A stretch of DNA of 64,000 bases from Armigeres subalbatus (taxonomy: Eukaryota; Arthropoda; Insecta; Diptera; Culicidae). Every line of letters begins with the position of its first letter. The stretch's first letter is position 1. Made by a program: the position numbers and the translations under genes. Where the stretch lies: contig NC_085140.1 in assembly GCF_024139115.2 (NCBI RefSeq), positions 464,163,506 to 464,227,505 on the forward strand. The letters are read 5' to 3'. The notes beneath the pieces are model-generated. The model was not told where the DNA came from. It saw only the letters and a program-made list of their open reading frames with translations, and made no database searches. Shown in pieces: positions 46,194 to 64,000 of this stretch.

Positions 46194-46201
46194 ATATACA
46201 G

Positions 46202-47555
46202 TAGACCTCTTCATGTTTTCAAAAAGTATCAAAAAATCAACCGGTCAGCCCAAAATCACAGTTCTTATGCTAAAATAAGTCTCCTGTCAAATTTTCAGCT
46301 AATTCGGATAAAATTTCGAGGTGGCTCAAGTCAATTTAGTGTTTTTGGGTTATTTTCAATTTTGGAAAAAATCTAACAAGAGATATAAACGTCGAAAACT
46401 ATCACAACAACATCTATACGGAAGCTTTTGGTTTGTTTTACAAGTCTTGTGAACATTGCGATTCGTTCCGTTCACGTTTTGTCCATGTTAAAGTGATTTT
46501 TAAGCTTTTAAGTGCATAAAAATACTATTTCCCCCAAAAGTCGTTGTTCTATAAAATTCTTAAGTTTATGACAAATGATTGTTAATTTATTATATTATTA
46601 TTTCTCCTTTTCCCCTGGAAATTTGAGTAATATAATTGCCCATGTGCGATTTATACTAAAGACACACTGGTGGTACAAGTACCACGGTTATATACCCTAG
46701 TACATATTGTACCATGGTTTTCCACGTTGTACCAGCATGGTACAAGGTGACACACTAGTGGTACAACTTGTACCATGGTACGAATACCACCAGTGTGTCA
46801 TTAGTATTACCGTTAAATTCTTAAAAATCAGAAGCTGAACATTTGTCATAAATTTGCACGTTAGGATTTCTTCAAGCAAGTTGTTCGAACAAAACATAAA
46901 TCAAATCATATGATATTTGATACTTACAACAAACAACATCCAAATTTTGTTAATTTCACCATATGTCTGCATGCTTTTAACATTGAGTGCATCGTAGTAA
47001 CAAGTGAAATCAAAGCTTCTTTGGTTGAACAACTTGTTTGAAGAAATCTCAGCGTGCAAATTTATGACAAATGTTCAGCTTCTGATTTTTAAGAATTTAA
47101 CGGTAAATCGCACATGGGCAATTATATTACTCAAATTTCCAGGGGAAAAGGAGGAATAATAATATAATAAATTAACAATCATTTGTCATAAACTCAAGAA
47201 TTTTGTAGAACAACGACTTTTGGGGGAAACAGTATTTTCATGCACTTAAAAGCTTAAAAATCACTTTAACATGGACAAAACGTGAACGGAACGAATCGCA
47301 ATGTTCACAAGACTTGTAGAGCACACCAATAGCTTCCATATAGAGGTTGTTGTATTAGTTTTTGACGTTTATATCTCATGTAAGATTTTTTCCAAAATTG
47401 AAAATAGCCCAAAAACACTAAATCGACTTGAGCCACCTCGAAATTTTATCCGAATTGGCTGAAAATTTGACAGGAGACTTATTTTAGCCTAAGAATTGTG
47501 ATTCTGGGCTGACCGGTTGAATTTTTGATACTTTTTGAAAACATGAAGAGGTCTA
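46202..47555. mobile_element. Foldback-type DNA element with about 530-bp inverted arms
   Basis: The arms begin TAGACCTCTTCATGTTTTCA and run inward to about 46889 (left, including a nested MITE) and from about 47036 to 47555 (right), with a loop of about 145 bp. Both sides are flanked by ATATACAG (46194-46201 and 47556-47563), a perfect 8-bp target duplication. An 8-bp duplication suggests hAT-like transposition. No transposase is encoded. Arms differ at scattered sites, so the element is not brand new. A 66-codon frame in the left arm is only arm sequence. Confidence 0.88.
46654..46806. mobile_element. MITE nested in the foldback arm, TTA target duplication
   Basis: The left end TACTAAAGACACACTGGTGG and the right end (reverse complement TACTAATGACACACTGGTGG) flank a 153-bp insert rich in GGTAC and GTACC palindromes. 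TTA is duplicated on both sides (46651-46653 and 46807-46809). The uninterrupted sequence GCGATTTACCGTTAAA is present in the right arm as its reverse complement, so the boundaries are proved internally. Confidence 0.9.
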
Positions 47556-47563
47556 ATATACAG

Positions 47564-51434: not shown

Positions 51435-51810
51435 GGAACGTACACACGGTCAAGCAGTTCGACCAACATTGACTCCACCTCCCGTTTATTCAAACATTCA
51501 TCAATTTTTATCAACACCGACACGAACAATCAATTTATTCGACCAACAATATCACACACGAACGACCGAAGCACCATCTCGAGCACCAACCATCAAAAAA
51601 TATATGGGGGTTTGTGCAACTTCACTACAAATGCTCAAACATGTTCGGCGAACATTGACTCCACCCCCGACAACTCAAACCAAAATCAAACCGTTTTAAT
51701 TTTTTCCAACCGAGCCGCCAACTGTCAAATGGTTGTTCGAACAACTTCACACACGTTCCAACAAAGCAGCAACCGAAGCGTTTTCTTGGGAGTGGAGTCA
51801 ATGTTTGTTA
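51435..51810. mobile_element. MITE-like element with ATTGACTCCAC inverted repeats
   Basis: GGAACGTACACACGG and AACATTGACTCCACC on the left are mirrored by GGAGTCAATGTT and CACACACGTTCC on the right. A third, direct copy of AACATTGACTCCACC lies at 51651. CAAACATT and TTCGACC motifs recur. Frames across it (51408-51842) are low-complexity Asn/Thr/Ser-rich and not genes. Confidence 0.45.
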
Positions 51811-52191
51811 AAAACGCGACTATCAGGAGCGTACGCTCATAGTGTAATCAATTAATATGATTAGCGATAGATTTCAATATCGAAATCTAATTTTGCATTT
51901 ATTAATTAACAGCCGTTAGAATTCATTGAACCCTCAGAAACAGAAAATAAACTCCCTCACCCCGGGGAACATAGGCAACAGATACCTGAAAGTGAAAACT
52001 GTCATAAACAATCACCCGCACAGCATAACAGTACCACGCACGCAGGGCTAGATACGAACGATGCGAGAGTAGCTAGAAGAAATAAATTTACGACCATCCA
52101 GCTCTCGCTGCATACGATCACGACGAGCGCTAGCCAGGGCAGAAAATGTAAACATTAGAAAAAGGATCACGTAGACGCCGATGCGCAGGCA

Positions 52192-52420
52192 CGATCATAG
52201 AAGAGCTACAACATAGAATGTTTACGTAACAGATAGGGCGCATATGTATTTCCCTACAGCGCCGATCACCGCTCGTGTGAGATAAGCATTAGGGAAACAA
52301 CCCCCGTACAGGCGCGGTCGTAAAAGGGCTGCAACATAGAATGTTTATGTAACAGATAGGCAGCATAGAATTTCCTTACAGCACCGATCGTCGCCTGGGT
52401 GAGATAAGTGCACCAGGCAT
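52192..52420 (+). repeat. Diverged tandem duplication of about 122 bp in U3
   Basis: AACATAGAATGTTTACGTAA (52211) recurs at 52333 as AACATAGAATGTTTATGTAA. Each is followed by CAGATAGG, then ACAGC(G/A)CCGATC and GTGAGATAAG. Repeated U3 blocks are often enhancers; function here is inferred only from position. Confidence 0.75.
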
Positions 52421-52643
52421 ATGGCACCACAGCGGTAGGAATAGGACTTAGAAGGGGCACATGTAGGCACCGATGCATTAGACATCCGGTCGTAAAATTG
52501 AGAATTTTCGTCTCTAAGAATTGAATGATTGTAACGACGGCAATGCAAGCCGCCGAGAAACGAAACCCTACGTGGGAATCCTAGAAGGCATCCTTTCTCT
52601 TTTACTCTTTAGGCTTAAGTTAAATTGTTAATCCAAAATCATG

Positions 52644-52651
52644 TATAAAAG
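52644..52651 (+). promoter_or_regulatory. TATA box of the retroelement
   Basis: TATAAAAG preceded by ATG. A TTGAGTATTG about 33 bp downstream (52675) could be the start region. It lies downstream of the U3 duplication and about 100 bp upstream of the first hairpin. Confidence 0.5.
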
Positions 52652-52752
52652 AACCTTCCCGAAATACAAGAATTTGAGTATTGTTTTAACCACGGAACGG
52701 ATCGGACCCTTTTCTTTTCGAGAACACTCCTTTGGTAAGTTAACATTTCGAG

Positions 52753-53340
52753 GTCTCCACTGCCAAGTACTGGACTGTACAGCTTGGTCGTCTGGAGACT
52801 TAGAAAAGTTTAACTGGTAAAACACTTGGCGAAATCTTCACTTGCCAATGCTTCCCACCGTCAGGTACTGGACTGTACAGCCTGCCGGTCTGGAAGCAGA
52901 ACACAAGTGTTGAGTTCTCGTAAGAGCCAAGTCATCTCAGACGTCAATTTCCCACCACCAGGTACTGGACTGTACAGCCTGGTCGTCTGGAAATTTGACT
53001 AAGTGCATGACTTAGCTTGTAGATCTCCAACTAGCCTATGATTCCTACTATCAGGTACTGGACTGTACAGCCTGCCAGTCTGGAATCAGAAAACTAGTGT
53101 CAGATCTCGACGAAGCCAACAGTTACCACAAACATTGGATTTCCCACTGCCAGGTACTGGACTGTACAGCCTGGCCGTCTGGAATTCCGATCAAGTGTGT
53201 AGCTTGACTCCCCCTTACAAGCAAACAGCGTCTTGAGCCGTCAACTCGACGGAACAAGACCCTGTTAGAAGAAGCGAAGGGCGCTGCTTAGACTTTCCAC
53301 TGTCAGGTACTGGAATGTACAGCCTGACCGTCTGAAAGTC
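52753..53340 (+). ncRNA. Array of six covarying RNA-type hairpins in R/U5 or leader
   Basis: Six 47-52-nt hairpins lie at 52753-52799, 52849-52898, 52946-52995, 53039-53088, 53137-53188 and 53291-53340. Each has a conserved apical segment TACTGGACTGTACAG (copy 6 has TGGAATG). An inner stem is CCAAG/CTTGG in copy 1, CCAGG/CCTGG in copies 3 and 5, and CAGG/CCTG in the others. The outer stems differ in sequence but keep pairing: GTCTCCA/TGGAGAC, TGCTTCC/GGAAGCA, AATTTCC/GGAAATT, TGATTCC/GGAATCA, GGATTTCC/GGAATTCC (one mismatch) and GACTTTC/GAAAGTC. Spacers are unrelated or only loosely similar. The apical segment contains the self-complementary CTGTACAG. Position between TATA and primer-binding site suggests an RNA role such as dimerisation or packaging. 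Confidence 0.8.
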
Positions 53341-53436
53341 GACAGCACACCACCCGTAGCTTACGTTCGTGATTTGGCCGTCCGAACCGCGATCTGGACT
53401 TCGCGCAGCTACGCGGATTTGGACCCCAAATTAACA

Positions 53437-53454
53437 TGGTGGCTCCAGAGAGGA
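53437..53454 (+). promoter_or_regulatory. Putative primer-binding site
   Basis: TGGTGGCTCCAGAGAGGA directly follows ...TTAACA. A TGG start complementary to a tRNA CCA end is expected right after a 5' LTR. The tRNA was not identified, and confirmation needs the 3' LTR. Confidence 0.4.
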
Positions 53455-53889
53455 AGTTACAAAAACCGCGTTCGTGTCGACGTAACTTCACGCGATCGTA
53501 CTCGCAGGGCGTAATCGTCGCCTAAAGAACGGTTAACGGCAGTCTTCAAGGTGCAACATGTGTGAGATGTTCACCTAAGTTTGTGCACCCAATCAAACAT
53601 TGCTTGCTATGTTCGAACTTGCACATAGCAATCTGAACACGAGCCTGAACTCCGATACACCCAGGCGCAATGTACAATGTTCAAACATCGAGTTTAAACT
53701 TGGGTTCAAACATGTGCGCTTGCACACGAGAATGCTACGCTTGGGCAAATGAACGGGTTGCTAGGGAAACTATTGTTGATTCTCCACGTTTCCCAGCTTT
53801 GTTATTCATATCTCGAATAAGAGAATTCAATGAAGGTATGATTGAAAAATTGAAACATGTTGTGCACATCTTTCGCACTTGCATAACGA

Positions 53890-53971
53890 AGCGTTTACAG
53901 AGGTGAGGTCTTGATTCAGGCCTTTCATTCAGGACGTCTTAGGTTCGAATCTGCTCTGAGTGGAGCTTTTT
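53890..53971 (+). mobile_element. tRNA-like fragment with B box
   Basis: AGGTTCGAATCT (53941-53952) is a good pol III B box, followed by TTTTT at 53967. An A box is unclear (GGTGAGGTCTTGATTC). Possibly a SINE head. Confidence 0.3.
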
Positions 53972-54928
53972 GTTCGATTTTCGAGGTTCTGAAAGCAATT
54001 CTTCTTAGGATTTCGGGATTTTGCAACCATCAAAAAACTGATTAGTTCATATTTCTAAAATTTTGGGATAAGATTTTTCTGACACGTTTATATGGGGATA
54101 ATTCATTCTACTTACTTTGCAGTAGGTAGTACTTGATAAATATACCGAGAATCTGAAGCGAAGTTCTGGGTTGCATAGATATTTCTTTATTCCAGGGAGA
54201 GGGTTTTCGACCTGTTTGAAGAACCTTATGATCAACGGGGCTTTAATTCCAGTTTTGTAATTTTTTAGATTGTCATAATTGGAGATTTTATCTTTTATGA
54301 GAGCCATGTAGTTTATAAGACTTTTATGTTTAAGGATTTGTGGGCTCATTTCTGACCTGGAGCTCCATCGTTTGTGAATTTTCTCTGTATTGCATAATGT
54401 CATCGGCGTATTATTTATACATAGCAATATAGAATACATTATGAACAGACCCCCTACTATCTTTTTAAATTTCTATCAATTTGAATTTTTGGTTAACAAC
54501 CTCCCTCCCCCACTAAAAGTGTGTCTTAGAACTTTTTGGAATCAACATCTATATTTTATTCATGATATGCAAATCTCATCGTATCTAACAGAACAAAATG
54601 CATGCTTGCATATGTAACGGATATAAAATAATTAGGGCTACATTTTAGACAGACGAACAGAGACTTATGTATTTTACCTCGTTTAGAACATAAACGCAAG
54701 GACACTTTAAATAATCATTACATTGGAGGCTGCCGGTTGTCTTACCGGGAAAATGCACATAATATTCAGTTGTTATGAACATTAAGAATAATATCTGAAG
54801 ATTGTATGCAAAATGTTGAGTAAACAAATTGTTGTGATATTGAGATATCTGTGCAACTAAGTGCAAACTACCTGACAAGGGCTGAAAAGTGGCATTTATA
54901 AAACTAAAACTATTCATGTGCCATTCCT

Positions 54929-55008
54929 AAAAAAATCCAAAGACAAGGATTCAAACACTAGTGCCCTGAGTGAACGCCAAACGAGTTACCACTAGGCCAT
55001 CACCGCTA
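54929..55008 (-). mobile_element. tRNA-derived SINE head or decayed tRNA
   Basis: On the minus strand a perfect A box TGGCCTAGTGG (54989-54999) is followed by a B-box-like TGTTTGAATCC (54947-54957) and a run of seven T (54929-54935) that could end pol III transcription. The D-arm resembles Asp/Glu/Gly tRNAs, but no acceptor stem forms. Confidence 0.5.
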
Positions 55009-55092
55009 CTGAAGAAGAGAAACTACTTGACCAATATGAACAGATGAACAGCATGCTGTGTGTAAACTGATGTTTAAATTTCCATGTTCAAA

Positions 55093-55511
55093 CCCGAATA
55101 AAAAAGTCCAATAGAGTTGCAATAGAAATTATTGTAACAATACAATAAATTAAATTGTAATTACAATAAACTCTATTGTTGCTGACAATAGAATAACAAT
55201 TAAGAATATTGTTTTCCACCATAAATCCTATTGTAAATGGCAGTTTTACAATAGAAAATAGGGGTTGTTAGTTACCGTAACAATAAAAAAATCGTTTTTT
55301 TCTCAAACAATTTTTTTACATTACAATAGAATTTATTGTAATTCTATTGTCAACATTTTTCTGTCAATAGATTTTATTGTACGTTTATTGGAACAACAAT
55401 AAGGCAATTTAATTGGTACAATAGAAGAACAATATAATTGAATGTTCATCAATAAAATGTATTGTAATTTTATGATATTCTAATGTAACTCTATTGTAGT
55501 TTCTATTCGGG
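55093..55511. mobile_element. CAATAG-rich MITE
   Basis: Ends CCCGAATA and TATTCGGG are inverted, and the next bases (CAATAGAGTT on the left, its complement on the right) extend the symmetry. The 419-bp interior is full of ATTGTAATTCTATTGT-type inverted motifs and has no ORF. Confidence 0.75.
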
Positions 55512-55896
55512 AACCCGTGTGTTTGAACTTGGGCGCACACTCGTGTTCAAACCGGGTGCGATTTTGGTTCGGTTTATGATGAACTCGGTTTGGATCTAGT
55601 ATGCATGTTTGAGTGCGAACTTGCACACGGGAAAACTGCACTTGTTTAAACGCGGTTCATGTTTTCGTGAAGACTGGTTAACGGTCGAACTAAGTGACAA
55701 GTGAATAGTGAAAAAACAGCACGCCTACTGTGAAGAAACTCCAAATTGCTAGGACTTGAAAAAATCTCCGGATTTTGAGCCGTAATCAGGAAAGCTCTAT
55801 TTTTGTCGGAATCGCAGGGACCCCTATGTATTACTGAAGAAATAGTGTGTGTATCGTGTGTGAATAGAATCGCAAGCTCTAAGTGTTTTTTCGATA

Positions 55897-56139
55897 ATGT
55901 CAAATCTTGAAAGAGAGATTGACGAGCTTGTCGATTACTTCAACGAACTAGAAGTTCAGGTACAACGAGCTAGGCAGGGAAGAAGTTTCCAGAGGTGGAG
56001 GAAATCACAACTCCCCAAGAATAGAGTGTGTGAAACGAAGGAAGTTGAAGTAGTTCTTTGGCCAAACACACCCAAAGAGAGAGTTGTAATTCAGAAAATT
56101 ACAAAATACGTTCACAGCACATACCCGAAGAAACCGTGA
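55897..56139 (+). CDS. 80-codon leader ORF of the retroelement, unknown function
   Basis: The ATG has A at -3. The first 25 residues have coiled-coil-like hydrophobic spacing (LEREIDELVDYFNELEVQVQ) and the C-terminal half is basic. It ends about 1.2 kb before the main ORF and before the 143-bp repeats, in a different frame, with no overlap. It could be an accessory protein or a regulatory upstream ORF. No family is recognised. Its codon and base use resemble the main ORF more than the AT-rich insertions before it. Confidence 0.4.
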   Translation: MSNLEREIDELVDYFNELEVQVQRARQGRSFQRWRKSQLPKNRVCETKEVEVVLWPNTPKERVVIQKITKYVHSTYPKKP

Positions 56140-56449
56140 GCAAACGGTCAATAGTGCTATAGTGCTTGGGAACAGTAGCTAGACAATTCTCACTTCTGAG
56201 ACAGTATTAGTGAAGTGAAAACAAGTGTAAGCCAACTGGAATACTTGATTACTTGCGGCATTTTCGAGGTAACATCCCTAGAGGTTGAAGGCACGTCAGC
56301 GATTTGGTAAGTCGAAAATTTCATTCACTTTGTCATACTTGCTATTTATTTTCGGCCGTGATCAAGTGTTACGATACGAAAGTACGATCTCGCAGGGACG
56401 TACTGTATCAAGGTATATGAATAAATCTGAGGAACGGGAATTCCCGGAA

Positions 56450-57200
56450 AAAGATTCAACAGTCCATTGGGACGCGAAGTGATCGGAAGGATCACAGTGT
56501 GAATTCTCTGAGGAGGTTCACCAGTCCAGTAGGACACTTTCTCGCCTAATAGAGGTGGGAGTGATCAAAGGATCACAAAGAGAATCTTCGGACAAGATTC
56601 AACAGTCCATTGGGACGCGAAGTGATCGGAAGGATCACAGTGTGAATTCTCTGAGGAGGTTCACCAGTCCAGTAGGACACTTTCTCGCCTAATAGAGGTG
56701 GGAGTGATCAAAGGATCACAAAGAGAATCTTCGGACAAGATTCAACAGTCCATTGGGACGCGAAGTGATCGGAAGGATCACAGTGTGAATTCTCTGAGGA
56801 GGTTCACCAGTCCAGTAGGACACTTTCTCGCCTAATAGAGGTGGGAGTGATCAAAGCATCACAAAGAGAATCTTCGGACAAGATTCAACAGACCATTGGG
56901 ACGCGAAGTGATCGGAAGGATCACAGAGTGAATTCTCGGAGGAGGTTCACCAGTCCAGTAGGACACTTTCTCGCCTAATAGAGGTGGGAGTGATCAAAGC
57001 ATCACAAAGAGAATCTTCGGATAAGATTCAACAGTCCATTGGGACGCGAAGTGATCGGAAGGATCACAGAGTGAATTCTCGGAGGAGGTTCACAAGTCCA
57101 GTAGGACACTTTCTCGCCTAATAGAGGTGGGAGTGATCAACGATCACAAGGGAATCTTCGGAAAAGATTCAACAGTCCATAGGGACATAATCTCTTCTAA
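56450..57200 (+). repeat. Five 143-bp tandem leader repeats
   Basis: The marker CAGTCCATTGGGACG recurs at 56460, 56603, 56746, 56889 and 57032, then at 57173 (141 bp on) as a partial sixth. Each repeat carries two short hairpins, GTGATC-GGAAG-GATCAC (56479-56495 in the first) and GTGATC-AAAG-GATCAC (56561-56576), plus CAGTCCAGTAGGACAC. Copies differ at a few sites. A strong 5' splice donor-like TTGGTAAGT lies upstream at 56305. Function unknown; repeat blocks in retroelement leaders can be insulators or enhancers. Confidence 0.92.
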
Positions 57201-57320
57201 AAGAGGCGTGAGTGGTAGACAGAGTCGCTAAAGACAGCAGTAAAGTGACCAAGGGGTCAGCTAAGGAATATATCCATCACAGGAATTACTTGTGAAGAAC
57301 AACGAAGCTATAGAATCAGA

Positions 57321-60300
57321 ATGTCTAACCCATTCGTAGAAAACAAAAACGGTCATTGCCGTTTGTGTCATGACAGCGATGATAAAGACGAATATATGGT
57401 CGCATGCACAGAATGCGACAGATGGTTCCATCCATCATGTGCTAAGCTGGTTACTAAACCATTACCAGAAGAAACATTCCTCTGCATAAAATGTAAGTCT
57501 ATTGAGAAGGAGTTCAATCGACTGAAACAGGCATCGAAACCCAAACCTACCACCTCAACGGAGGCGTTCTTTGAAAAAATGTTGAGTGGTCAACAAAAAT
57601 CGATGAGCGATATTACCCAAGCATTGGTAGGGCTTGGTGTAAAAAAGGACAACGAAACTAAGGAGGATTGGACGATCTACCTGAAAAGACAGGCGCTATC
57701 ACGATTACCTAGATTTGGAGGAGCTCCGAAGGAATGGCCGAATTTTAAAAGATCCTTCGAAAGAACTACCGAAGAAGGAGAGTTCACCCACCTGGAAAAT
57801 TTACATAGACTCCAACAAGCTCTATACGGTACTGCCGCTAAAAGCGTGCAGCAGCTTATGATGGACTCGGAAAATGTTCCGAAGATTATGTCCAGATTGG
57901 AAGAGTACTATGGAAGATCAGATCAAATTTACAGAGAACTATTGGGCGACCTAAATAAATTGAGAAGAGAGTCTAAAACAATCGTCATCGAAATGGCAGC
58001 CGCCCTAGAAAATCTCGTAAGTATCATAAGGTTGATAGAAAAGGAAGAGTACTTATCGGACCACAGGTTGGTCGAGGAGTTGGTAAAAAAGCTTCCCTAT
58101 AATATCCAGGTTAAAAGGGCAGAGTATTATCTAAATGCTCCGAATCAGCTAGCCTTGCAAACGTTGGACGATTTAGAAGCATGGCTTGTGCCATTCGCTA
58201 GGACAGCAAGGGCAATGATGCTAGTGGCACCGCAACCTCAAAAAATGTCCATAAATCATCATGAGCAAGCAACTAAAGAGGATAAGATTGTTAATTGGGC
58301 ATGTCCAGCTTGCAAGAAAACCGTTCCTCATAAGATTTTTAACTGTACTTCCTTTAAAAAAATGAAGGTAATCGACAGAACATCGGTAGCTCAGAAACTA
58401 CGATTGTGTTTCAGTTGCCTGAAAACCTCAAATCACAACATGTTCAACTGTCCGGATAAGAGAAATTGCAATGTCAAGGGGTGCAAGAAAAGGCACAACA
58501 GATTGTTACATCCCGAAGCAGAACATTCTCGTTTGGATACCCAGGCAATTAACAACCACAACGAAAACACAGGTCCGTCAATGGTTTACTACCAAATCGT
58601 CCCAGTAACTCTGAGAAATAAGGATAAGGTCGTCAATACATACGCGTTTTTAGACCCGGGATCATCGTTATCTTTATTGGAAGCTGAAGTGGCACGGGAA
58701 CTTAATTTGGTGGGAAATTTAAAACCGCTTCAACTTACCTGGACCCAAGACATGGTTTCAGATCATAACGCAAGTAGAAGCGTGCAACTGACCGTTAGGG
58801 GGGCTACGAAAAAGAGTTATATTTTGAAAGACGTCAGAACGATTAAAAACCTTAATCTACCGATGCAATCGATGAACGTCGAGAAGCTATGTCAACGTTA
58901 TTCTCATCTACGCGGGCTTCCTTTACGCGGTTTTGAAAAAATAAGACCAACCTTGATGTTAGGATTAACTCATAATTATCTACTTATAGGTCACGAACAT
59001 CGTTTGGGAAATCCAGGAGAACCGGTCGCTATGAAAACGAAACTTGGATGGTTGGTTTATGGTAAAATAACCGGGAACGACGAAATGAACCACTCCATGA
59101 TAGTACACGAAGAGGATCCTCTTCGTAAGATCATGGAAGACTATTTCTCGGTAGAGAACTTCGGTGTTAAACCCGTGAAGGAACTACCAAGTTCAATCGA
59201 GGAGAAGAGAGCCAATGAGATCATAAAGAGAACCTTAAGATATAACGAAGGAAGGTATGAAATTGGCTTACTATGGAAACAGGACTCTTACGAGTTTCCA
59301 AACAGCATTGATATGGCTAGAAAGAGGTTAATAAATCTAGAGGACAAACTCTTAAGAAATCCACCTCTAAAGAATTGGGCTATTGAAACCATGAAGGACT
59401 ACGTGAACAAGGGCTATGCAAGGAAGTTGAAACCAGCTGAACTGATTGCCGAAAGCAAGTCAACTTACTATTTGCCACACTTCATAGTCATTAATGAGAA
59501 CAGGCATCCACCTAAGCCTAGACTGGTCTTCGACGCAGCCGCCAAGATACAGGGAAAATCTTTTAACTCGGCACTCTTATCTGGACCGGATAGTACAACA
59601 TCACTATTTGGCCTTCTAATAAGATTTCGAGAAGGACGTTACGCGGTCTGCGGAGACATAAAGGAAATGTTTCATCAGGTGAAAATAAGAACTGAAGACC
59701 AAAACGCGCAAAGATTTCTTTGGAGAGATTGCAATAGAAATCAACACTACCCGGATGTATACGTTATGCAAGTAATGACGTTCGGCTCGACCTGTTCACC
59801 ATCATGCGCTCAAGCCGTGAAGAATCATAACGCCGAGCGCTTGAAGGACAAGTACCCATTAGCCCTTCAACCAATAACTAATCAACATTATGTGGATGAT
59901 TACGAGGATAGCTTCAATTCCTTGGAAGACGCCGTAAACACCGTTGACCAGGTAATCAAGGCACACGGTGAAGGTGGATTCTTCATAACCAAATTCTGCA
60001 CGAATAGCAAGGAATTATTGGATACAATTCCGAAAGACAGACGCGATCCCGAATCCATTAAGCTCTTGGAGGATAAGGAAGATGAATCCACCAAGATCCT
60101 CGGCATCTATTGGAATGCCAAAAAGGATAGCATTGGTTATAATGTGAAGCTAGACAGATTACCGAAGGAAGTACGTCTTAAGATGAGACGACCAACGAAA
60201 CGAGAAGTTCTATCCTTCGTAATGAGCGTCTTTGATCCTCTAGGACTGATATCGCACGTCACGATTCACGGCAGAATACTCCTACAAGAACTACATAAGG

Positions 60301-63300
60301 AAACATCGGAATGGGATGTGGTGATATCGGAAAAATCGGAGAAGCTTTGGGGACAATGGCTTGAAAGAATCGAGTCCACCAAGCACATAAGAATACCCAG
60401 ATGGCTACTAGAGAATGCAGGAAATCAAGTAGAAATGCACGTTTTTGTCGACGCGTCAGAGAAGGCTTTCGCAGCCGTTATCTATTTCAGAACTAACACA
60501 GGGGGAATACCCTGTGTAAGATTAACCGCTGCTAAATCAAGAGTTGCTCCGATTAAGGCTCTGTCTATTCCAAGACTAGAATTACAAGCCGCATTACTCG
60601 GAGTTAGATTGGCCGATACCGTTAAAGCCGAAACCAGACTAAGAGTAATTAAGTCCGTTTTCTGGTCAGATTCAAAAACGGTGTTGGCCTGGATAAACTC
60701 AGAACATAGAAAATATAAACCCTTCGTCGCACATCGAATTGGAGAAATCCTCGATTCAACTACTATGGATCAATGGAGGTGGGTACCATCCGGCAAAAAC
60801 CCAGCAGACGAAGCTACGAAACCAGCTCCTAATCAATCGATATGGATATCAGGTCCTGAATATCTAAAACTTGAACCAAAGGAATGGCCAGAAGCCGAAA
60901 TTGAAAAAACGACCGAAGAAGAACGGTTCACAGGAATTCATGACGAAAGACAGGACTATATCAATGAAGGGAATTTCTCGAGTTGGTGGAAATTACTTTT
61001 TCGCATATGCATGATAATGAAGATAATTCAGTTCGGCTTAAGAAGATCTAGTTTTTCCAAGGCATTCACAATGCGAGATCGTTGCCAGGCAGAGAATATT
61101 CTGTATCGAAAGGCTCAAAACGATATTTATCCCGATGAAGTAAAGGACCTGAAGAAGAATAAAACCGTCACGATTATTGGGCCCCTTTGCAAGTTATCAC
61201 CCCTCCTGGACGACAACGGAGTAATGCGTACTCGAAGCAGATTAGAATACGCGCAAAATATCCCAACAAGTGCAAGGACACCAATTATTCTTCCAAGAAA
61301 CCACCACATCACGAATTTGATTATACAATGGTATCACGAAATGTTCAATCATCATGCAGATAAGGCGGTATTAGCAGCATTACAACAAAAATTCTTTATA
61401 GTAGGCCTGAATTCCGCTTTTAACTACGTCAAGGCACGGTGCCAGAAATGCATGAACGCCAGAGCTAATCCAAAGGCACCGATGATGGCAGCATTACCAG
61501 CTTGTAGAACCGACTCGCACATATATCCTTTCACTCATACGGGAGTGGATTACTTCGGACCCTTCGAAGTAACCATTCGTCGGTCAAGGGAGAAGCGATG
61601 GGGCGTAATATTCACCTGCATGAGCACAAGGGCATCACATATTGAATTAGCTAACAAACTAGACACCGATGCCTTTCTACTATGTTTCATGAACTTCCAA
61701 AATAGAAGAGGTAAAGTTTTGCATCTTTACAGCGACAACGGAACTAACTTCGTTGGAGCTGAGAATGAGCTAAAGGAAGTCGTAAGAGGAATAAATTCAA
61801 GGATGGAAAAAGGAGAAGCAATGAAGCTCGAGTTATCTTGGCATTTCAATCCACCAAGGGCACCACATTTCGGAGGCGCCTGGGAAAGGCTAATAAGAAT
61901 AATCAAGGATAACCTGAAGGATATGATTGATGCTCGGAAAAACAGGCCACCTCCGACGGAGGACGTTCTGAGAGGAGTACTGATCCAGATAGAATATTTC
62001 CTAAATTCACGACCTCTAACTCACATCCCACTAGATTGCGATGAGGACGAAGTACTTACTCCCTTCCACATCCTTATTGGAAGAGCAGGTCGATCGTCAA
62101 TACCGCTCGCCTTCAAAACTCATGAATTAGAACGAAAACATTGGCGTCTGGCAACCTATTACGCCAAATATTTTTGGAATCGTTGGAAGACAGAATATCT
62201 GCCACTTATTGCACAACGGCCAAAGTGGAACGCCAAGGTAGAACCAATACAAGTTGATGACATAGTCTTGATTGCCGACAGAGACGTCGACAGATTTGAA
62301 TGGCTCAAGGGACGCGTCATCGAGGTCATAGAAGGACGAGATCACCAGGTTAGGTCCGTAAAAATAAAAACAGCCCACGGAATCTTTCTACGACCAGCAA
62401 TCAACGTCGCAGTGCTGGACGTATACAAAAAGAAACACAAGAAGGAAGACAACAACGAGAATGTAGTCAACCAAGAGACTTGCATGCTAACCACTGAGTA
62501 CAACCCATCGATTTTTAGCGACGAGGACTTAGAAATCATGGCATCAGAAATCGAGAAAAACATAAGGGAATCGTCTGACGACGTTGACGAAATAGCACCA
62601 ATCATCGAGGCAACGTTCATCGAAGAAGCGTCGAGCAACGGCACAGAAGCAGCGCACATCCGAAAGGCGCAGAGCAGCAGCACTGCAAAATTCAACGAAG
62701 TAGCGCCAATCATCGAGACAACGTTCATCGAAGAAGCGTCGAGCAGCGGCACAAAAGCAGCGCACATCCAAGGGGCGCAGAGCAGCAGCACTGCGGAATT
62801 CAACGAAGTAGCGCCAATCATCGAGACAACGTTCATCGAAGAAGCATCGAGCAACGGCACAGAAGCAGCGCGCATCCAAAAGGCGCAGAGCAGCAGCAAA
62901 ATTGAAGGATTCATCGAAGGGGAACAGATCAACGAGACAGCGTTCGTCAAGGACGCATTGATCATCAAAGAGGCATCACTGAACAAGGAGATCTTGTTCA
63001 CTGAAAAGAGACTACCCAACAAGACAACAGGGATAAAAAACCATTCAGTCGAATCAGAAGGGGCCATCGAGCCGGTAACGAGGAATAAAACCAATTGGAA
63101 ACTCCCTGGAAGACACAAAAGAAGAAGCAGAAAAAGAGTAGCACCATGTACATGGGCGAGTAGCGGCTTAACGGCAACAACAAAACACGTAACCATGAAA
63201 ACGGATGGATCACTAAACAAGGTCCTGACGGAAAATCAACGCCAAGCGAAAAGACCCTGTACTATTAACTTAAATCTCTGGTCGCTAACTATCATCATGC

Positions 63301-64000
63301 TTATGATATGCCTTGGACAAGTTTTTGGAAGTGAGTTAAAAGGCCTTATAGCCTACGATTGCGCTAGTAATGATGTAAATATTACTAGTTACTCACTAAT
63401 GGATGTAGCGTCGTGTATTCCACCAGCCAGGAATCTTACGACGGAACAGAAGCACATCCAAGTTTTACAACGAAGCCCAAAGGTACTTATACACGTACAC
63501 CAATGCAAGGTCATAATGAAACGATCCATTAGGCATTGTGGCGCATTTTCTCATACATCGGACTACGAATACGGTTACGCGTATATCGTCAAAGAATTTA
63601 CACCAGACGAATGTAAACTAGCTCAATTACTAGGAACAGTAGCGCTATCCGAAGGACATCGAATTCGAGAACTCCGCCGTAATAGTACAACCAGAGGAGA
63701 GACCTTGATCGTGGGCAGTATAAGAGGAACTTCTTGCAATGGAGGAACTTACAGAACGCCAACATATACATGGGAAGGAGCCTTAGTCTATTACGAATAC
63801 GAGATAAGCATGTACGATTACACAGCAATAGTTGACATCGAAAATGATCAAGTCACATTGAGGAACGGAATAATATGTCCTTACAACTCCGGATGGTGTC
63901 TCGACTCCGAATTTGGATATATGACTTGGGAAGTCGATCTAAGACGGCAATGTGAAGAAACAGAATTCGAAGTTATTTATCAAGGGACAGTCAATAAAAC
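57321..64000 (+). CDS. BEL/Pao Gag-Pol-Env polyprotein, open at window end
   Basis: One frame stays open from ATG 57321 (A at -3; in-frame TGA upstream at 57246) to the window edge, 2,226 codons. Domains by residue: PHD finger with C13, C16, C29, C32, H37, C40, C55, C58; DUF1759-type Gag region about 120-300; Cys/His knuckles about 328-397, including C363-C366-H372-C377; aspartic protease with D445 in LDPGSS; reverse transcriptase with RLVFDAAAK (734) and YVDD (857-860); RNase H with D1044, E1087, D1117, D1163; integrase HHCC (H1339, H1344, C1374, C1377) and D1410, D1472, E1522; a DUF5641-like C-terminal domain about 1590-1700. A linker with 36-residue repeats and an Env-like domain follow. 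The set of Pol domains and their order identify BEL/Pao. All expected catalytic residues are present, implying recent insertion and possible activity. The 3' end is outside the window. Confidence 0.97.
62589..62903 (+). repeat. Three in-frame 108-bp (36-residue) repeats between integrase and Env
   Basis: APIIE(A/T)TFIEEASS followed by GT(E/K)AA(H/R)I and AQSSS recurs with a 108-bp period (starts about 62589, 62697 and 62805, the last partial). The period keeps the frame. The segment is acidic and Ser/Ala-rich, so probably a flexible linker. The long antisense frames on this stretch (62342-63220) are shadows of its low-complexity codons. Confidence 0.9.
63120..64000 (+). other. Envelope-like domain fused in frame to Pol
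   Basis: After a basic stretch RRSRKR (residues 1934-1939, furin-like) and a hydrophobic segment (about 1983-2003, [15 protein letters not shown], signal- or anchor-like) comes a Cys-rich region that starts YDC at 2012-2014 and has NIT, NLT, NST and NKT glycosylation sequons. The spacing YDC...NIT..SLMDV..C resembles arthropod chuvirus (Jingchuvirales) glycoproteins, which I recall being reported in mosquito BEL/Pao elements. That assignment is by pattern only. The domain is cut off by the window edge, so any transmembrane anchor or fusion loop is not visible. Confidence 0.6.

What the first reader, a model, noticed from the sequence alone, without database searches (positions are those of the whole stretch)
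52753..53340. Six tandem hairpins with compensatory stem changes upstream of the putative primer-binding site of a BEL element
The six hairpins share an apical TACTGGACTGTACAG and have outer stems of 7-8 bp that differ completely in sequence yet pair in every copy, with one mismatch in one copy. Inner stems also covary (CCAAG/CTTGG versus CCAGG/CCTGG versus CAGG/CCTG). Spacers do not show this. Direct duplication would preserve sequence, not pairing, so selection on RNA or cruciform structure is the simplest reading. The self-complementary CTGTACAG in the apex suggests kissing-loop dimerisation or packaging. I do not know of a described element of this kind; novelty is inference.
Basis: partly seen in the sequence, partly recalled or inferred. 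Interest (0 to 1): 0.95.

Follow-up and report, generated by a model that had tools for sequence, protein, structure and literature searches.

The report
RNA hairpin array in retrotransposon LTR
A virus-like jumping gene, probably in a mosquito genome, carries six repeated RNA hairpins near the start of its transcript whose tips stay the same while their stems change sequence but keep pairing, and a related family carries similar hairpins with different tips, which suggests a built-in label by which the element's own proteins could recognise its genome.

Summary
The hairpins are real. Six tandem hairpins (52753-53340) share a tip (15 of 15 nt in five copies, 14 of 15 in the sixth). Their outer arms differ but pair best with their own partner (1 of 720 arm permutations), and RNAalifold finds the same structure unprompted. 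The location needs correcting: the array lies inside the LTR (51806-53436, both LTRs, TSD ATGTT), downstream of a TATA box, so presumably in U5, between a conserved donor-like GTAAGT (52735) and the PBS. The element is a BEL/Pao retroelement with a chuvirus-type glycoprotein. A sister family (66-69% gag identity) keeps the hairpin frame and, in three loci, a donor-like motif, but has GNRA-type tips (GAAA, GAGA, GTGA) in place of CUGUACAG. That supports the structure and argues against the palindrome as the general function. A third LTR type has two U5 hairpins with its own shared tip and different pairing arms; a fourth is weaker; five others show none. Best reading: a multivalent recognition signal in unspliced genomic RNA, most likely for Gag (packaging). 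Binder, splicing and U5 borders are inferred. My searches of open-licence papers listed no paper whose title or abstract start suggested such an array.

The parts
51801..51805 (.). 5-bp target-site duplication ATGTT
   Evidence: the same 5 bases follow the 3' LTR in L009
51806..53436 (+). 5' LTR (TGTTAAAA...TTAACA)
   Evidence: 98.96% identical over 1637 columns to the 3' LTR in L009, about 13.8 kb downstream
52644..52649 (+). TATA box
   Evidence: TATAAAAG or TATATAAGACG at the same place in the 9 aligned sequences that hold the stretch, one of them the element's own 3' LTR
52663..52668 (+). AATACA, possible poly(A) signal; would put the end of R just downstream and the array in U5 (inference)
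   Evidence: read; not tested
52735..52740 (+). putative 5' splice site GTAAGT (cut 52734|52735)
   Evidence: GGTAAGTTAAC in the 9 aligned sequences that reach it (window, its 3' LTR and 7 other loci) although the bases before it differ; CAG|GTAAATAT upstream of hairpin 1 in three sister-family loci
52753..52799 (+). hairpin 1
52849..52898 (+). hairpin 2
52943..52999 (+). hairpin 3
53039..53088 (+). hairpin 4
53134..53191 (+). hairpin 5 (one T-T mismatch in the outer stem)
53291..53340 (+). hairpin 6 (tip with one change)
53437..53454 (+). primer-binding site TGGTGGCTCCAGAGAGGA, directly after the LTR
   Evidence: the same 18 nt stand upstream of gag in other BEL loci of this genome
57321..64000 (+). 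polyprotein frame (2665 aa open, runs past the window): PHD, DUF1759, RT, Peptidase_A17, DUF5641, Monjiviricetes glycoprotein
58302..58451 (+). two CX2CX5HX4C zinc-knuckle-like motifs (the canonical CX2CX4HX4C spacing did not match)

Best explanation
The array is a multivalent RNA recognition signal of a BEL/Pao retroelement. The element's LTR writes six hairpins into the 5' part (U5) of every full-length transcript. Each hairpin is a spacer stem whose sequence is largely free as long as it pairs, lifting a fixed tip: a 2-nt 5' bulge, a 3-4 bp upper stem and a loop. The array lies between a splice-donor-like site and the PBS, so spliced RNA would lack it and only the genomic RNA would carry it. 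The most likely partner is the element's own Gag, which has two nucleocapsid-like zinc knuckles; several tips would give avidity and so select genomic RNA for packaging. Shown: structure, repetition, covariation, LTR location, the donor-like motif and PBS next to it, different tips in different families. Inferred: transcription start and U5, use of the donor, the binder, packaging.
For: Own-arm pairing best of 720 permutations; unprompted consensus fold with 7 of 17 pairs doubly changed and kept; 5 of 23 structure pairs against 2 of 1688 others in a tree-based null; model R1 hits in the sister family at E 1.6e-6 to 2.6e-8, a third hairpin weaker, with different tips and compensated upper stems (u1 C-G to A-T in 3 rows, u3 G-C to A-T in 7 rows). 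Donor-like motif just upstream of hairpin 1 in both families. L065/L066 have two U5 hairpins with their own shared tip and different pairing arms; L043/L051 likewise, more weakly. The tip is nearly constant within an element but changes between families, which fits a partner that evolves with the element. Knuckle-like motifs in the gag part. [quoted passage not shown]
Against: No RNA, binding or packaging data. Splice use is not shown and no acceptor was identified. Among window-type copies spacers are almost as conserved as stems, so conservation alone does not single out the hairpins. Two of five measures did not exceed shuffles (pairs changed on both sides 9, reached by 58 of 500; further pair types 18, reached by 480 of 500). 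Five LTR types with this PBS or a near form of it show no shared-tip array (L026, L031, L032, L039, L052/L053), and L026 is a 67% gag relative; so Gag of this kind does not always go with an array. L058/L059, with a window-like LTR end, keep only the 3' half of hairpin 6.
Confidence: 0.42

Rival explanations
1. Nuclear-export element (CTE/RTE-like): the tips recruit a host export factor so that intron-containing genomic RNA leaves the nucleus.
For: Lies downstream of a conserved donor-like motif, so an unspliced RNA would need export; retroviruses use cis-acting export elements for unspliced RNA (abstract starts in the listing; that they are repeated structured motifs is recalled).
Against: A host factor should keep its binding site, but the tip changes between families with 66-69% gag identity and again in other families.
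Confidence: 0.18
2. Genome dimerisation through kissing of the self-complementary tip CUGUACAG.
For: The 8-nt palindrome is in five of six window tips; a two-strand fold of hairpin 2 is 5 kcal/mol better than two monomers.
Against: Sister-family tips have GAAA, GAGA or GTGA loops without the palindrome; hairpin 6 breaks it; three of its eight bases are upper stem in the supported structure.
Confidence: 0.12
3. Control of translation or stability of the long leader (IRES, Gag feedback, TAR-like activation): tips bind a regulator unrelated to packaging.
For: The leader is long and highly structured; bulge plus short stem plus loop resembles retroviral TAR (recalled).
Against: No transactivator or IRES evidence was sought or seen; Rfam has no match at gathering threshold (3 weak unrelated matches at E up to 5).
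Confidence: 0.15
4. DNA-level element: cruciform or repeated protein-binding site in the LTR, comparable to the insulator array of gypsy (recalled).
For: Wobble states do not favour the RNA strand (8 against 8 distinct states); repeated tips could be a DNA site.
Against: A duplex-DNA site would not need compensated arms; position downstream of the TATA box; the + strand has the better fold z-score.
Confidence: 0.08
5. By-product of tandem duplication without function.
For: h2/h4 and h3/h5 are relics of a 190-nt duplication; decaying copies have lost hairpins by deletion.
Against: Duplication keeps sequence, not pairing; three recombinant hairpins have mismatched arms (left out), which the six-hairpin arrays of window, L009, L010 and L020 do not show; the array is more conserved than U3.
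Confidence: 0.05

Closest known systems
Anakin elements (BEL/Pao retroelements with a chuvirus glycoprotein, PMC7642597)
   Same: Same protein make-up: BEL/Pao polyprotein plus Monjiviricetes fusion glycoprotein; mosquito genomes in that paper (passages).
   Different: Its main text has no occurrence of 'hairpin', 'untranslated' or 'primer binding'; it gives 100-900 bp for BEL/Pao LTRs, here 1631 bp.
Retroviral packaging signals (MLV DIS-2, SL-C, SL-D; HIV-1 psi)
   Same: Small hairpins near the 5' end of genomic RNA; [quoted passage not shown]
   Different: Here upstream of the PBS and inside the LTR; six near-identical tips on different stems; binder not shown.
CTE of MPMV and RTE of IAP (recalled; search listing)
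   Same: Structured motifs for unspliced RNA.
   Different: No host-factor motif identified; tips differ between families.
MS2 coat-protein sites (PMC8472981, figure legend among the passages)
   Same: Several RNA sites offered to one protein.
   Different: Here clustered in tandem in one LTR, not spread over the genome.

Membership tests
BEL/Pao LTR retroelement | LTRs with TG...CA ends and short target-site duplication | tested here: met
   98.96% identical LTRs, ATGTT on both sides
BEL/Pao LTR retroelement | Peptidase_A17 (Pao), DUF1759 and RT in one polyprotein | tested here: met
   Peptidase_A17 and DUF1759 above cut-off, RT 27.4 bits against a cut-off of 29.6, probably because my piece ended inside it at 59900
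Anakin (chuvirus env capture) | chuvirus-type glycoprotein within the LTRs | tested here: met
   Monjiviricetes_fusion 184.7 bits at about 63291-63998; the 3' LTR lies further downstream
Retroviral packaging signal | lies downstream of a splice donor, so absent from spliced RNA | tested here: inconclusive
   conserved donor-like motif just upstream; use not shown
Retroviral packaging signal | bound by Gag/NC and needed for packaging | not testable with these tools
   only knuckle-like motifs in the gag part
Kissing-loop dimer initiation site | palindrome in the loop kept across relatives | tested here: not met
   absent from sister-family tips
TAR | at the very 5' end of R and bound by an element-coded activator | tested here: inconclusive
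   hairpin 1 begins about 80 nt downstream of the start guessed from the TATA box; start not mapped; activator not looked for
CTE/RTE export element | recruits a host export factor | not testable with these tools
   none
Any Rfam family | score above the family's gathering threshold | tested here: not met
   over 51806-57320: 3 weak unrelated matches at E up to 5, none at threshold

The most novel reading that the evidence does not exclude
BEL/Pao retroelements carry a modular address label in U5: tandem hairpins whose tip is uniform within an element and is replaced as a set when families diverge, with stems evolving under pairing alone. The tip and the element's Gag would evolve as a matched pair that keeps families of one genome from packaging each other's RNA.
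Probability: 0.28. Interest if true: 0.82.

Novelty: new variant of a known kind. Interest (0 to 1): 0.62.

Why it matters
RNA signals for genome recognition are well studied in retroviruses, but I found none described for BEL/Pao in the papers searched (0 papers hold both 'Bel-Pao' with hyphen and 'packaging signal'; the spelling with a slash cannot be searched). Here the code seems visible in sequence: repeated tip, free stem, tips changing between families living in one genome. It would make packaging specificity, and its evolution, testable with short synthetic RNAs and Gag fragments.

Tried and rejected
GUAC/GUAC alternative for the tip: low in the ensemble (0.02-0.25) and impossible for the sister tips. 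Wobble asymmetry as proof of the RNA strand: inconclusive. Stem against spacer conservation among window-type copies: not discriminating. MAFFT alignment of the two families misregisters the tip by one base, so one search uses a hand-made register and a null that I wrote (60 null alignments), not R-scape. Viral contigs: 0 exact matches to the core pattern. Leader junction in L011/L012 (donor 56306|56307 joined to sequence matching about 58994): a reverse-transcribed splice or a deletion; left open. Rows dropped before counts: 7 of 40 distinct hairpins left out of A1 by eye, because one arm was lost, replaced or recombinant; 3 of 40 recombinant hairpins left out after I had seen them. The pattern that gathered the hairpins for demands parts of the middle and inner stem and, for sister-type tips, limits the upper stem, so invariance there is partly built in. 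Absence of arrays in other LTR types rests on folding by eye, repeated 11-mers and a self-comparison; the 11-mer test also missed L030/L051, so absence is weak evidence.

Full report
What the element is. The window is part of a 1.336-Gb genome of 2076 contigs, three of them 319, 465 and 430 Mb. The hairpins belong to an LTR element. Its 5' LTR is 51806-53436, the 3' LTR lies about 13.8 kb downstream (98.96% identity over 1637 columns), and ATGTT flanks both ends. The LTR begins TGTTAAAA and ends TTAACA, followed at once by TGGTGGCTCCAGAGAGGA (53437-53454). One frame from 57249 runs past the window end (2665 aa open). It holds a PHD finger, DUF1759, RT (below cut-off, at the end of my piece), Peptidase_A17, DUF5641 and a Monjiviricetes fusion glycoprotein, and two CX2CX5HX4C motifs behind DUF1759; the canonical CX2CX4HX4C spacing did not match. 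This make-up is that of the Anakin elements of PMC7642597 (passages read).

The observation. Six tips are present, spaced 98, 97, 93, 99 and 153 nt in register. In the fold of the whole 606-nt stretch all six hairpins take the same shape: outer stem, internal loop, short AC/GU helix, mismatch, inner stem, two-base 5' bulge UA, CUG/CAG, loop GACUGUA. The energy is z -7.98 against 20 shuffles; the reverse strand gives z -5.65. Ensemble pair probabilities are 0.93-1.0 for inner stems and near 1 for outer stems apart from the h5 mismatch and the far end of h3; the upper CUG/CAG is weaker, 0.45-0.68. Outer arms choose their own partner over all others (1 of 720 permutations). Between the six copies the 15-nt tip is 93-100% identical and the outer arms 32-82%.

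Copies in the genome. The 23-nt core has 42 exact matches, with 0 for the reversed control. From 15 fetched loci and the window I read 65 tips with up to 3 mismatches and 40 distinct 58-nt hairpins at up to 2 mismatches. Seven of these 40 had lost or exchanged an arm and were left out; 33 entered alignment A1. On A1, 91.1% of cells pair against 82.3% in shuffles (0 of 500 as high), and 78 cells changed on both sides against 26 (0 of 500); but pairs with a double change (9; 58 of 500) and further pair types (18; 480 of 500) did not exceed shuffles. RNAalifold, given no structure, returned the same hairpin with 7 of 17 pairs doubly changed and kept. One clear case between orthologues is hairpin 1: GTCTCC/GGAGAC in the window, GTTTCC/GGAAAC in L010 and others. 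A counter-example is hairpin 2: L010, L013, L020, L022 and L023 have GGAAACA where the window has GGAAGCA, with the other arm unchanged, a C-A mismatch.

Age and conservation. In L019, L020, L021 and L023 the array is 91-96% identical to the window while U3 is 79-86% (L010, L018 and L022 give 54-61% for U3 because part of it is missing or rearranged, compare). Spacers (90-96%) are nearly as conserved as stems (91-98%) over the seven loci, so at this depth the whole array region is constrained or young, and only the comparison between the six copies and between families isolates the hairpins. Copies in decay have lost hairpins by deletion (L012, L021, L022, L023), and L058/L059 keep only the 3' half of hairpin 6.

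The sister family. A 326-aa gag piece found 135 matches, with 123 of 3975 candidates scored. Of the 30 loci returned, three had model R1 hits below E 0.01 (L027, L028 and the window-type L049); the 1.5-kb flanks of many do not reach an LTR. With further upstream pieces, elements with 66-69% gag identity (L027/L054, L028/L055, L025/L056) show hairpins at E 1.6e-6 to 2.6e-8, and a third hairpin only at 0.03-0.5. The frame CCACTGTCAGG...CCTGATTGGTCTG and the two-base bulge are kept, but the tips are TA-CTAG-GAGA-CTAG, TA-CTAG-GTGA-CTAG, TA-ATAG-GAAA-CTAT and CA-ATAG-GAAA-CTAT. The loops fit GNRA. Outer arms again differ and pair (AAATTCTC/GAGAATTT; GTCTTC/GAAGAC), with one mismatch in L055 and poorer pairing in the third hairpin. 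In a combined test on 37 of 40 distinct hairpins (30 window-type, 7 sister-type; 3 recombinants left out), pairs o5, o6, o7, o10 and m5 pass E 0.05 under a tree-based null that I wrote, against 2 of 1688 other column pairs; o8 is borderline (0.052), and 17 pairs are not significant, partly because they hardly vary. Upper-stem pairs change in step (C-G to A-T in 3 rows, G-C to A-T in 7 rows), which supports CUG/CAG; the GUAC/GUAC alternative is not possible for the sister tips. One relative with 67% gag identity, L026, has another LTR end and no array in the 760 nt before its PBS, of which the first 300 or so are pol-like, so its leader may be a mosaic.

Position in the transcript. A TATA box lies at 52644. 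Just upstream of hairpin 1 stands G|GTAAGTTAAC (donor-like GTAAGT at 52735-52740). It is kept in the 9 aligned sequences that reach it (the window, its own 3' LTR and 7 other loci) although the preceding bases differ in sequence and length. Three sister loci have CCCAG|GTAAATAT before hairpin 1 (C1544, C1:266.94M, C2:438.12M); in L027, L050/L063, L061 and L062 the stretch is missing or replaced. A more distant family has GTGCAG|GTAAATAG about 250 nt before its PBS. AATACA close to the expected start would make R very short and place the array in U5; that is inference. If the donor is used, spliced RNA loses both array and PBS.

Primer site. The 18-nt PBS is identical in several other BEL loci. 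In the sister family L028, L050 and L062 have it exactly, while L027 and L056 read TGGTGACCTTCCAGAGAGG.

Other LTR types. Besides the window and sister types I could read seven further LTR types before this PBS or a near form of it. L065/L066 (near gag matches) carry two hairpins 115 nt apart with a shared tip region (80-84% identity) and different long arms: own arms -22 to -24 kcal/mol against -6 to -8 for exchanged arms, 0 of 2000 shuffles as good in each of 4 tests, self-similarity reached by 0 of 60 shuffles. L030/L043/L051 carry two with a common tip shape, own arms -19 to -22 against -8 to -14, 0 to 47 of 2000 shuffles as good in 6 tests; self-similarity passes in L043 (0 of 60) and L051 (2 of 60) but not in L030 (60 of 60), whose second tip also does not fold as expected. 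L026, L031, L032, L039 and L052/L053 show no shared-tip array (shuffles as good in 15 to 60 of 60, with L053 standing for the last type). So shared-tip arrays are seen in 4 of 9 LTR types, two of them related to each other, one weak.

Interpretation. The tip is nearly uniform within an element, differs between families, and stands on stems mainly under pairing constraint. That is expected of binding sites for one partner that changes with the element; Gag is the natural candidate and packaging the natural use, by analogy with MLV, where packaging stem-loops lie downstream of the splice donor (PMC8472981, passages). Host-factor export elements should not change tips so readily. Self-kissing through CUGUACAG cannot be general.

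Print. In searches (open-licence PMC only) no listed title or abstract start suggested such an array; I did not read the listed papers apart from passages of two and a term search of a third. PMC7642597 and PMC3118150 have no occurrence of 'hairpin' in the main text. Subscription papers were not searched, and 'BEL/Pao' with a slash cannot be searched.

Noticed in passing
53540-55681: Insert of about 2.1 kb in the leader between PBS and gag, with CAGTCTTCA...TGAAGACTG ends and GTTAACGG on both sides (hAT-like, name recalled); in L010, L021 and L022 homology stops at 53539 and resumes at about 55670.
   Followed up: partly
56451-57186: About five tandem 143-nt repeats in the leader; the copies folded form multi-hairpin domains with GTGATC/GATCAC and GTCC..GGAC hairpins.
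   Followed up: partly
L011:2420, L012:2520 against window 56306 and 58994: Leader joined at a second donor-like site (TTTG|GTAAGT, 56307) to sequence that follows an acceptor-like TTATAG in the window: possible reverse-transcribed splice product or deletion.
   Followed up: partly
L027, L028, L056, between the hairpins: A second repeated hairpin type in the sister family (GTAGACTACCCGCTGAGCGGCGTGTC) alternates with the main one.
   Followed up: no
L054 and L026: Another BEL LTR type with the same 18-nt PBS but a different LTR end and no array seen.
   Followed up: partly
L055, L063: Upstream of or inside sister-family LTRs lies a long array of CGTGTTTGGAGGACCGCC-type repeats.
   Followed up: no
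46197-47560: Inverted repeat with 457-nt arms, 95% complementary: possibly another mobile element.
   Followed up: no
53437-53454: The tRNA that the PBS would match was sought with a pattern but the search did not complete.
   Followed up: no
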